Shown: piece by piece, positions 15,115-50,464 of the stretch | Numbering within the stretch: position 1 is the stretch's first letter | Layout: each line of letters starts with the position of its first letter | Assembly (NCBI GenBank): GCA_026415505.1 | Contig: JAOAGY010000023.1 | Coordinates: 1 to 61,267 of the forward strand | Source of the DNA: Chlorobiota bacterium | GTDB lineage: Bacteria > Bacteroidota > Ignavibacteria > Kapaibacteriales > NICIL-2 | Direction: 5' to 3' | Length of the DNA stretch: 61,267 nt | The notes under the pieces: model-generated | What the model saw: only the letters and a program-made list of their open reading frames with translations | Told to the model about the DNA's origin: nothing | The model's database searches: none | Position numbers and translations under genes: made by a program

Positions 15115-15346
15115 CGCGACATGTTCTCCAGTCGCTGCCGCCGTGCGACTGCCCGAGGTAGGTTCGGAAGCAGTGGGAGAACGACTCAAAAATCGGCAAC
15201 CGATACGGCTCGTGCAAGAAAAATTTTTCCACGTCCAGTGGCACGATTTTTTGTACCGTGCCGCAAGTGATTGTGCCGTAGTTTTGTTGCGTGTCCGTGC
15301 GGCAAGACCACCCGGATTTGTTGTAAGGCATCGGGTCCGCCGGCAT

Positions 15347-15534
15347 GTCACCCCGAACACGTTTCAGGGTCTTTTTCCCATTGTCTGTCACCCCGAACTT
15401 GTTTCGGGGTCTTTTCGAGATGCTGAAACAAGTTCAGCATGACAGGCGGCGGACGCTATGAGATGCCGAAACAAGTTCGGCATGACGGACAACACGCACA
15501 GTCAAAACGCACAGTGCTGAAACAAGTCCGGCGC
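15347..15534. repeat. Cluster A: five short palindromic repeats between nrdJ and the 15589 gene
   Basis: The 474-nt gap 15115-15588 holds five copies of the dispersed palindrome, in both orientations: ACCCCGAA/TTCGGGGT, ATGCTGAA/TTCAGCAT and ATGCCGAA/TTCGGCAT stems, one copy with a C/A mismatch and a degenerate last copy. The remaining sequence near nrdJ (15115-15346) shows no gene or recognised riboswitch. Confidence 0.9.
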
Positions 15535-24564: not shown

Positions 24565-25077
24565 AACGAGTTCAGGGTGACGAATGGGGGAATGAGACCC
24601 CGAAACAAGTTCGGGGTGACCGCCTAAAAGCAGAGACCCTGAAACACGTTCAGCATGACACGCGGCGGTAAGTGCATCCCCTGCCTGTCATGCTGAACTT
24701 GTTTCAGCATCCCACCGCACTGCCCGTCATGCCGAACTCGTTTCGGCATCTTGTTACACCGCCACCCGTCATGCTGAACTCGTTTCAGCATCTCATGGAG
24801 ACCCTGAAACAAGTTCAGGGTGACAGCCTCAAAAGCAGAGACCCTGAAACACGTTCAGGGTGACACGCGACGGTAAGTGCATCCCCTGCCTGTCATGCTG
24901 AACTTGTTTCAGCATCCCACCGCACTGCCCGTCATGCCGAACTCGTTTCGGCATCTTGTTACACCGCCACCCGTCATGCTGAACTTGGTTCAGCATCCCA
25001 CCGCACCACCGTATGTCATGCTGAACTTGTTTCAGCATCCCACCGCCACCCGTCATGCCGAACTCGTTTCGGCATCT
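24556..25077. repeat. Cluster B: about 13 palindromic repeats, partly in a 205-bp tandem duplication
   Basis: The gap 24565-25149 is almost entirely repeat elements in both orientations. All four stem types occur (ATGCTGAA, ATGCCGAA, ACCCTGAA, ACCCCGAA with their complements). The block starting near 24661 recurs near 24866, a 205-bp period. No gene is seen in the gap. Open frames through the block are artefacts of the repeats. Confidence 0.92.
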
Positions 25078-36426: not shown

Positions 36427-37032
36427 CATGCTGAACGTGTTTTCGGCATCTCGTCGCACCACCGTCCGTCATGCTGAACTTGGTTCAGCATCTAATGCTG
36501 GGAGACCCTGAAACAAGTTCAGGGTGACGTGCTTTGGTGTGTATGCCTTGCCGCCCGTCATGCTGAACTTGTTTCAGCACCTCACCGCACCACCGCCCGT
36601 CATGCTGAACTCGTTTCAGCATCTTGTTCGAGACCCTGAAACAAGTTCAGGGTGACAGGCAGGAGAAAAGACCCTGAAACAAGTTCGGGGTGACAGACCA
36701 TTTGTGCGTCCCCTGCGTCATGCTGAACTTGGTTCAGCATCTAATGCTGGGAGACCCCGAAACAAGTTCGGGGTGACGTGCTTTGGTGTGTATGCCTTGC
36801 CGCCAGTCATGCTGAACTTGGTTCAGCATCTCACCGCACCACCGCCCGTCATGCTGAACGTGTTTCGGCATCTGGAAAGACCCTGAAACAAGTTCAGGGT
36901 GACGTGCTTTGGTGTGTATGCCTTGCCGCTTGTCATGCTGAACTTGGTTCAGCATCTCACCGCACCACCGCCCGTCATGCTGAACTCGTTTCAGCATCTT
37001 GTTCGAGACCCTGAAACAAGTTCAGGGTGACA
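36427..37032. repeat. Cluster C: about 15 palindromic repeats in higher-order units
   Basis: The 682-nt gap 36406-37087 is mostly repeats. The block beginning gtgctttggtgtgtatgcc recurs at about 36529, 36778 and 36904 with attached palindromes. Stems are mainly ATGCTGAA/TTCAGCAT and ACCCTGAA/TTCAGGGT. After 37032 there is only a weak 7-bp inverted repeat (37052-37082). No gene is seen. Confidence 0.92.
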
Positions 37033-48226: not shown

Positions 48227-48298
48227 GGTCCCATCGACTAATGGTTAGGTCACCACCCTTTCAAGGTGGCGGTACGGGTTCGAATCCCGTTGGGACTA
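48227..48298 (+). tRNA. tRNA-Glu (anticodon UUC)
   Basis: The cloverleaf folds fully: acceptor GGTCCCA/TGGGACT with a G-U first pair, D stem GACT/GGTC, anticodon stem CCACC/GGTGG with loop CTTTCAA (anticodon 48260-48262), a 4-nt variable loop, and T stem ACGGG/CCCGT with loop TTCGAAT. The discriminator is A; CCA is not encoded. Confidence 0.95.
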
Positions 48299-48307
48299 CT
48301 GGTGCCT

Positions 48308-48327
48308 CCGCTTGAAAAACAAAGCGG
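48308..48327 (+). terminator. Possible hairpin terminator after tRNA-Glu
   Basis: CCGCTT and AAGCGG (48308-48313, 48322-48327) can pair over an 8-nt loop. Only two T residues follow, so termination is uncertain. Confidence 0.3.
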
Positions 48328-48405
48328 TTAGAGAAGCGTTGCTGATGCTCTGACGCAGCGAGGATTCCGAAGGAAGAATACCGCTGAGCTTTCCACCTAA
48401 CATTT

Positions 48406-48484
48406 CGTGCTCTGAAACCGCAGCAGCTCACAATCGAGCCGATGACTGCGTCGTCGCGCCCCTCGCGGGCGCGTGGATTGAAAC
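48406..48484 (+). CRISPR. Remnant of a type I-C-like CRISPR array: one full repeat, one spacer, one partial repeat
   Basis: A 32-nt unit at 48453-48484 has the type I-C direct-repeat form: start GTCGCGCCCCTCGCGG and end GCGTGGATTGAAAC. Exactly 34 nt upstream, a normal I-C spacer length, lies a partial match (48406-48418, cgtgctctgaaac, 10 of the last 13 positions identical), as if the 5' half of a repeat had been lost. The reverse strand of both gives the peptide FQST at 66-nt spacing, as expected for one array. No second full repeat and no cas genes occur in the window. The 306-nt region 48299-48604 otherwise holds only a possible terminator and the promoter at 48526. Confidence 0.75.
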
Positions 48485-48525
48485 CCGATTACACAACGCT
48501 TAGCCACAACGCAACGGGGCATGCA

Positions 48526-48533
48526 TATCTTTG
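48526..48533 (+). promoter_or_regulatory. Bacteroidota-type -7 promoter element for the sugar dehydrogenase
   Basis: TATCTTTG matches TAnnTTTG exactly and lies 72 nt before the ATG at 48605, 42 nt after the CRISPR repeat. Confidence 0.5.
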
Positions 48534-48604
48534 CTCGCCCAATACGGCACCTGCTGGCATATGACATCTCGCGGTGACACATCACAAAATTCGGCGAGCC
48601 GCTC

Positions 48605-49987
48605 ATGCTAACCTCGTCGCTTCCTCGGATCGCGTGCGTTGCGATATGGAGCATACTCCTTGTTCCGGCTTCCTTGTCGCAGACACTCTCGCTTCGCACT
48701 GTCGCGACAGGACTGGACACCCCGTGGGAAATTCTCTGGGGTCCCGATGGTTGGCTGTGGGTGACCGAACGCGCCGGACGCATCAGCCGCATCCATCCCG
48801 AAACCGGTGAGCAACGTCTCATCGTCACGCTCGGCGACGTGTACGAGCAAGGCGAAAGCGGTTTGCTCGGTATGGCGCTCCATCCGAACTTTGCCGATTC
48901 GCCGCACGTGTTCGTTGCCTACACCTACCGCGATGGCTCGGCGATTCTCGAACGCATCGTGCGCTTGACCTACGACGGCTCCTCGCTCGGCGACATGCGC
49001 ATATTGCTCGACCGGATTCCCGGCGCGACGATCCACGACGGCTGTCGGTTGATCGTGCTGCCTGACCGCACGCTGCTGGTCACGACCGGCGATGCGAACG
49101 TCGCTTCTCGCTCCCAAGACGTGCAAAGTCTAAACGGCAAAGTGTTGCGCATCAATCTCGACGGCACCATTCCCGCCGACAATCCCATTCCCGGCAGTCC
49201 GGTCTGGTCGCTCGGACACCGCAACGCGCAAGGACTGACGTATTACGACGGCATCGTGTACAGCTCCGAACACGGTCCCAACAACGACGACGAAATCAAC
49301 ATCATCGAACGCGGGCGCAACTACGGCTGGCCGACAGTGATGGGCTATTGCGACTCGCCCGACGAGCAAGACTTTTGCCAGGCAAACAACGTCGCCGAAC
49401 CGATTGCCGCCTGGACCCCGACGATCGCGCCGTGCGGCTTGGCGTACTACGCCAGCGACCGCATCCCCGAGTGGCGACATTCGCTGCTGCTGGTGACGTT
49501 GAAAGCGGCACGGCTGGTGGTTCTCACGCTCGATTCGACGCGGCGGCGAGTCGTCTCTCGACGAGAATTTTTGGTCAATCAGCTCGGACGTCTCCGCGCT
49601 GTGTGTGTCTCGCCCAATGGGCGCGTGTTCGTCGGTACGAGCAACCGTGACGGTCGCGGCACACCGCGCACCGGCGACGATCGCATCGTCGAACTGACCG
49701 TTGCCACATCGTCGGTACCGGAAGAACGCTCGCTGGTTTGGTTTTTCGAGCCGGAGCCTGCTGCTGACCATGCGCACATGCATCTGCGATTGCCTGTTTC
49801 GTCGTCGGTCGCACTCACGCTCGTGGACATCCTCGGCAGGCATCGCTCGACGTGGGATTTCGGTTTCCGCGCCGATGGTTTGCACCGCTTCGATCTGGAC
49901 ACTTCGACCGTTGCTGCCGGCATGTACATCGCAACACTCACGCTCGGCAGCCACCGCTATAGCCGACCGCTTATCATCATCCGCTGA
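48605..49987 (+). CDS. Secreted PQQ-type sugar dehydrogenase with T9SS sorting-domain-like C-terminus
   Basis: This 460-residue protein has a signal peptide ending near PASLSQ. Residues about 30-370 match the soluble glucose/sorbosone dehydrogenase (YliI) beta-propeller: LDTPWEILWGPDGWLWVTER, GLLGMALHPNF, WSLGHRNAQGLTYY, SSEHGPNNDDEINII. The family oxidises aldose sugars with PQQ. The last 80 residues (VALTLVDILGRHRSTWDFGF, then AAGMYIATLTLG) resemble a type A T9SS sorting domain. It is monocistronic, and a palindromic repeat cluster begins about 36 nt after its stop. Confidence 0.85.
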   Translation: MLTSSLPRIACVAIWSILLVPASLSQTLSLRTVATGLDTPWEILWGPDGWLWVTERAGRISRIHPETGEQRLIVTLGDVYEQGESGLLGMALHPNFADSPHVFVAYTYRDGSAILERIVRLTYDGSSLGDMRILLDRIPGATIHDGCRLIVLPDRTLLVTTGDANVASRSQDVQSLNGKVLRINLDGTIPADNPIPGSPVWSLGHRNAQGLTYYDGIVYSSEHGPNNDDEINIIERGRNYGWPTVMGYCDSPDEQDFCQANNVAEPIAAWTPTIAPCGLAYYASDRIPEWRHSLLLVTLKAARLVVLTLDSTRRRVVSRREFLVNQLGRLRAVCVSPNGRVFVGTSNRDGRGTPRTGDDRIVELTVATSSVPEERSLVWFFEPEPAADHAHMHLRLPVSSSVALTLVDILGRHRSTWDFGFRADGLHRFDLDTSTVAAGMYIATLTLGSHRYSRPLIIIR

Positions 49988-50022
49988 TCGCACGGCGACG
50001 TTGCACTCTGCATGACCAGGGA

Positions 50023-50464
50023 TGAGATGCTGAACCAAGTTCAGCATGACAGTACCGCAGCGTGTCACCCTGAACTCGTTTCAGGGTCTCTTCGCATTCC
50101 TTGTCACCCTGAACTTGGTTCAGGGTCTCTTCGAGATGCCGAAACAAGTTCGGCATGACGGGTGGTGACAGTGAGATGCTGAAACAAGTTCAGCATGACG
50201 GACAGAGCGCACAGGCAAAAGCATGTCACCCCGAACGTGTTTCGGGGTCTCATTCTCCCCTCCCCCTCACGTCACCCTGAACTTGTTTCAGGGTCTTTTC
50301 GAGATGCCGAAACAAGTTCGGCATGACAGGTGGTGACAGTGAGATGCTGAAACAAGTTCAGCATGACGGACAGAGCACACAGGCAAAAGCATGTCACCCC
50401 GAACTTGTTTCGGGGTCTCATTCTCCCCTCCCCCCCACGTCACCCTGAACTTGCGTCAGGGTCT
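50023..50464. repeat. Cluster D: about 11 palindromic repeats with a 168-bp duplicated unit
   Basis: The gap 49988-50463 consists mostly of palindromes in both orientations. The block gagatgccg...gagatgctg... at 50133 recurs at 50301, a 168-bp period. All four stem types are present. The last element runs into the plsY stop codon (50464-50466). No gene in the gap. Confidence 0.92.

What the first reader, a model, noticed from the sequence alone, without database searches (positions are those of the whole stretch)
48406..48484. Near-erased type I-C-like CRISPR array beside tRNA-Glu
One canonical I-C-type repeat remains, preceded by a 34-nt spacer-sized segment and the 3' third of another repeat. 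This looks like the trailer end of an array removed by a deletion that cut inside a repeat. The position just after a tRNA gene suggests the lost part lay on, or was replaced by, an integrated element. No cas genes are nearby.
Basis: partly seen in the sequence, partly recalled or inferred. Interest (0 to 1): 0.6.

Follow-up and report, generated by a model that had tools for sequence, protein, structure and literature searches.

The report
Leftover repeat of a lost CRISPR
A single perfect copy of a type I-C CRISPR repeat, next to a glutamate tRNA gene, is most likely the last trace of an immune locus that sister bacteria still carry at the same spot, so it is a nice fossil but of an ordinary kind.

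Summary
The 32-nt repeat at 48453-48484 is real: an exact type I-C repeat, never seen in shuffles, and the only copy (up to 3 mismatches) in the 2.29-Mb genome. The genome has no Cas8c and no Cas3c; its only cas1 found belongs to a separate type II (Cas9) locus.

Same-genus relatives support the relic reading. In G005, a complete I-C operon (cas3-5-8c-7-4-1-2 plus a 55-repeat array) follows the same tRNA-Glu, in the same orientation. In G004, cas3 is truncated and joined to the array, with the rest of the operon gone. In G001, cas3 lies one gene further on. In G003, the site holds an integrase gene and no Cas8c. The window shows the same locus at an advanced stage of loss.

The finer claims are weaker. 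The "3' third of another repeat" matches 10 of 13 bases (chance about 1 in 1500 before allowing for choice), is more decayed than its perfect neighbour, and the 34-nt "spacer" matches nothing. Trailer-end origin and a cut inside a repeat are unproven. The sequence after the repeat begins a block (GSDH-plsY-guaA) found elsewhere in relatives, so rearrangement contributed.

Non-functional relic; known kind; modest interest.

The parts
48227..48299 (+). tRNA-Glu (TTC), conserved left flank of the locus in five of six genomes of the genus
   Evidence: ARAGORN; the 21-nt 3' end is found once in each of five genomes
48300..48405 (.). unassigned segment between tRNA and the repeat remnant; carries a 16-nt stretch (48326-48341) matching G002's I-C leader 15/16, a weak possible leader trace
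   Evidence: local alignment against leaders with shuffles, uncorrected p about 0.003; no significant match to the leaders of G005 or G001
48406..48418 (+). possible 3' end of a decayed or cut second repeat (10/13 match), unproven
   Evidence: direct sequence comparison; background rate
48419..48452 (+). 34-nt spacer-sized segment, candidate spacer without known target
   Evidence: length only; no convincing match elsewhere
48453..48484 (+). intact solitary type I-C CRISPR repeat
   Evidence: exact match, unique in the genome; array repeat in relatives and other bacteria; hairpin
48485..48604 (.). right flank, junction to the GSDH-plsY-guaA block that lies elsewhere in relatives
   Evidence: no significant similarity to relatives' trailers or GSDH upstream regions; synteny
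48605..49987 (+). glucose/sorbosone dehydrogenase family gene, first gene after the relic
   Evidence: PF07995, E 1.1e-84

Best explanation
The solitary repeat is the last remnant of a type I-C CRISPR-Cas locus that stood downstream of tRNA-Glu in this genus. The cas operon and nearly all of the array were lost by deletion and/or rearrangement, leaving one perfect repeat. With no I-C effector found in the genome it should guide nothing and is presumably neutral. Shown: the repeat, its uniqueness, absence of Cas8c and Cas3c, and the intact or half-deleted loci at the same tRNA in relatives. Inferred: that this genome's ancestor had the full locus at this place, and the order of events. Recombination between identical repeats, which can erase an array and leave one repeat, together with loss of the cas operon, is the likeliest route.
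For: Exact single-copy repeat. G005: tRNA-Glu, then Cas3c, Cas5c, Cas8c, Cas7c, Cas4c, Cas1c and Cas2c (best PADLOC E values from 8.8e-200 to 4.4e-39), then 55 repeats, all in the same orientation as in the window. G004: cas3 truncated at about residue 436 of 775 and joined to the array, no Cas8c. G001: cas3 start on the tRNA-Glu contig, remainder of the operon on another contig. Own genome: no Cas8c, no Cas3c, completeness 99.27%. Repeat recombination leaving one copy is proposed as array collapse in PMC8047081.
Against: Sequences directly flanking the repeat (48300-48452 and 48485-48604) match no relative's tRNA-downstream region or array trailer, and at most one leader weakly, so the deletion junctions cannot be placed. 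The sister genome in the guaA-region tree (G003) also lacks Cas8c, so presence in the direct ancestor is inferred. The gene after the repeat has different upstream neighbours across the genus, so more than a simple deletion happened.
Confidence: 0.83

Rival explanations
1. The repeat is a solitary repeat unit brought by a mobile element, acting as an RNA anti-CRISPR (Racr) that mimics I-C repeats.
For: Solitary repeat units of type I-C with anti-CRISPR activity exist (PMC10651486); an identical solitary repeat occurs in an IMG/VR contig (L131); the flank of this tRNA holds an integrase gene in a sister genome.
Against: Neighbours are core genes (CoaE, GSDH, PlsY, GuaA); no promoter-like site was found between the tRNA and the repeat; the genome has no I-C effector to inhibit; the same tRNA carries full I-C loci in relatives.
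Confidence: 0.04
2. Assembly collapse: the real genome has a longer array or cas operon here.
For: Draft assembly of 42 contigs; the arrays of G001 and G002 lie at contig ends.
Against: The repeat sits inside a 61-kb stretch with unique sequence on both sides; Cas8c and Cas3c are absent at 99.27% completeness.
Confidence: 0.05
3. The repeat reached this place by rearrangement with an array elsewhere and was never part of an array beside this tRNA.
For: The GSDH-plsY-guaA block is displaced relative to G003 and G005; in G001 a lone repeat at C52:77-108 lies about 5 kb upstream of the same block, so the repeat could have come with that side.
Against: Same tRNA and same orientation as the I-C loci of G004 and G005, which would be a coincidence.
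Confidence: 0.08

Closest known systems
Type I-C CRISPR-Cas locus of same-genus genome G005 (Candidatus Kapabacteria bacterium KatS3mg039)
   Same: identical 32-nt repeat, same tRNA-Glu on the left, same orientation
   Different: G005 has the whole cas operon and 55 repeats; the window has one repeat and no cas genes
Type I-C locus of same-genus genome G004
   Same: same tRNA, I-C locus damaged by deletion
   Different: keeps truncated cas3 and 18 repeats; its commonest repeat differs by one base
Solitary repeat units / RNA anti-CRISPRs (PMC10651486)
   Same: one CRISPR repeat without cas genes in an intergenic region
   Different: no mobile-element context, no matching host system, no promoter-like site upstream

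Membership tests
Type I-C CRISPR array | repeat sequence and hairpin of the I-C kind | tested here: met
   exact match to array repeats of a genome with Cas5c/Cas8c/Cas7c; hairpin
Type I-C CRISPR array | at least two repeats separated by spacers of regular length | tested here: inconclusive
   one full repeat; the second is a 10/13 match over 13 nt at a 34-nt distance
Type I-C CRISPR array | I-C cas genes in the genome | tested here: not met
   no Cas8c and no Cas3c; Cas5c and Cas7c were not searched separately
Type I-C CRISPR array | leader before the first repeat | tested here: inconclusive
   one weak 16-nt match to G002's leader only; the leader block CTAACCGAAGTTG shared by three relatives is absent
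Solitary repeat unit / Racr | encoded on a virus, prophage or plasmid | tested here: not met
   neighbours are core genes; 48300-48604 has no match in phages, and in plasmids only matches around the repeat itself
Solitary repeat unit / Racr | transcribed from an upstream promoter and inhibits the cognate system | not testable with these tools
   no promoter-like site between tRNA and repeat; activity needs an experiment

The most novel reading that the evidence does not exclude
The 3' flank of tRNA-Glu is an exchange site in this genus at which whole type I-C CRISPR-Cas cassettes are gained from related species and lost again, perhaps helped by an integrase, and the lone repeat is the footprint of one such loss.
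Probability: 0.3. Interest if true: 0.4.

Novelty: new member of a known kind. Interest (0 to 1): 0.25.

Why it matters
Loss of CRISPR loci is known, but intact, half-deleted, single-repeat and absent states at one tRNA within a small genus give a small natural series of how a locus decays. It also cautions that a lone repeat need not be an active element.

Tried and rejected
Spacer target search in IMG/VR, phages, plasmids and the own genome: nothing convincing. Spacers of the genome's type II array against the fetched loci: only 14-15 nt chance-level hits. Relatives' I-C spacers against the window: short chance-level matches only. Duplicate of the tRNA 3' end as an att site: none in the genomes tested. 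PPDK and metE, which stand between repeat and GSDH in G001, were not found in the own genome at DNA level. Rfam: CRISPR-DR9 matches the repeat but below the gathering score (22.2 against 45 bits).

Full report
Observation. The 32-nt sequence at 48453-48484 is an exact type I-C CRISPR repeat. It does not occur in shuffles, occurs once in the whole genome at up to 3 mismatches, and is the repeat of arrays in many unrelated bacteria. A tRNA-Glu gene ends 153 nt upstream.

Partial repeat and spacer. Matches this good occur at 16 other positions among 122,510 in the window, so at about five spacer-compatible offsets the chance is roughly 7e-4 before allowing for choice of what to look for. A perfect repeat beside one with 3 of 13 bases changed is also odd if both were left by one recent deletion. 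The 34-nt segment has a fitting length but no convincing match anywhere tested. I regard both as possible, not shown.

Relatives. Five same-genus genomes are held. In G005 (same array coordinates as the record of Candidatus Kapabacteria bacterium KatS3mg039) tRNA-Glu is followed by Cas3c, Cas5c, Cas8c, Cas7c, Cas4c, Cas1c and Cas2c and 55 repeats. In G004 cas3 breaks off at about residue 436 and runs into the array, and Cas8c is gone. In G001 the start of cas3 lies on the tRNA-Glu contig, one large reading frame after the tRNA, with the rest of the operon on contig C66. G002 has the end of cas8c through the first repeat on a short contig. G003 has a tyrosine integrase gene 93 bp after the tRNA and no Cas8c. 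Orientation of repeat and tRNA is the same in the window, G004 and G005.

Own genome. No Cas8c and no Cas3c. Its only cas1 match lies beside a Cas9 gene and an array of at least 57 repeats of another kind. That Cas9 also has close relatives in G001 and G004, and G001 holds both systems, so the type II system did not simply replace I-C.

Right side. The repeat is followed by a GSDH-family gene, then plsY and guaA. In G003 and G005 the GSDH gene follows an alanine-racemase-like gene. In the own genome the homologue of that gene lies on another contig, beside a stretch that in G005 stands beyond guaA. So a rearrangement separated the block from its G003/G005 neighbour and it now stands next to the relic. 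G001 also has a lone repeat about 5 kb upstream of the block, which might mean an old adjacency, but this is not resolved.

Lateral exchange. Between G004 and G005, identity in 125-bp bins is mostly 0.5-0.7 upstream of the tRNA and 0.82-0.97 in all but one bin from the tRNA into cas3. The guaA-region DNA of the two is 72.6% identical. G002 and G005 share cas8c to cas2 at 87.9% against 72.2% for the guaA region. This pattern suggests the cassette moved between lineages with a boundary at the tRNA. No duplicated tRNA end was found, so site-specific integration is not shown.

Mechanism. Recombination between identical repeats can erase an array down to one repeat (proposed in the review PMC8047081); loss of the cas operon may have come before, with, or after this. 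Perfect identity of the remaining repeat to G005's suggests that maintenance was lost recently. Function is unlikely without an effector; a Racr-like role (PMC10651486) is not excluded but has no support in context.

Noticed in passing
L108:555-3380 (G005, KatS3mg039): The leader-side spacers (46 scored) are short (mostly 23-34 nt) and strongly depleted in homopolymer dinucleotides (TT 3 times in 1322 nt), unlike the 34-36 nt spacers further on; this may be an assembly or polishing artefact.
   Followed up: partly
L131:10540-10571 (IMGVR_UViG_3300008255_002065): The identical repeat occurs alone in a viral contig, beside AT-rich DNA: a candidate solitary repeat unit / RNA anti-CRISPR.
   Followed up: partly
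L110:77-108 (G001 contig C52): A second lone I-C repeat, 76 nt from a contig end and just before a PPDK gene, in a genome with an I-C operon.
   Followed up: partly
L121 (G000 contig C37): Type II Cas9 (1166 aa), Cas1 and an array of at least 57 repeats running to the contig end in the window's own genome.
   Followed up: partly
window 15343-15452, 24594-24925, 36588-36741, 50021-50167: A dispersed repeat of about 110-160 nt (74-85% alike to a copy on contig C4) recurs through the window.
   Followed up: no
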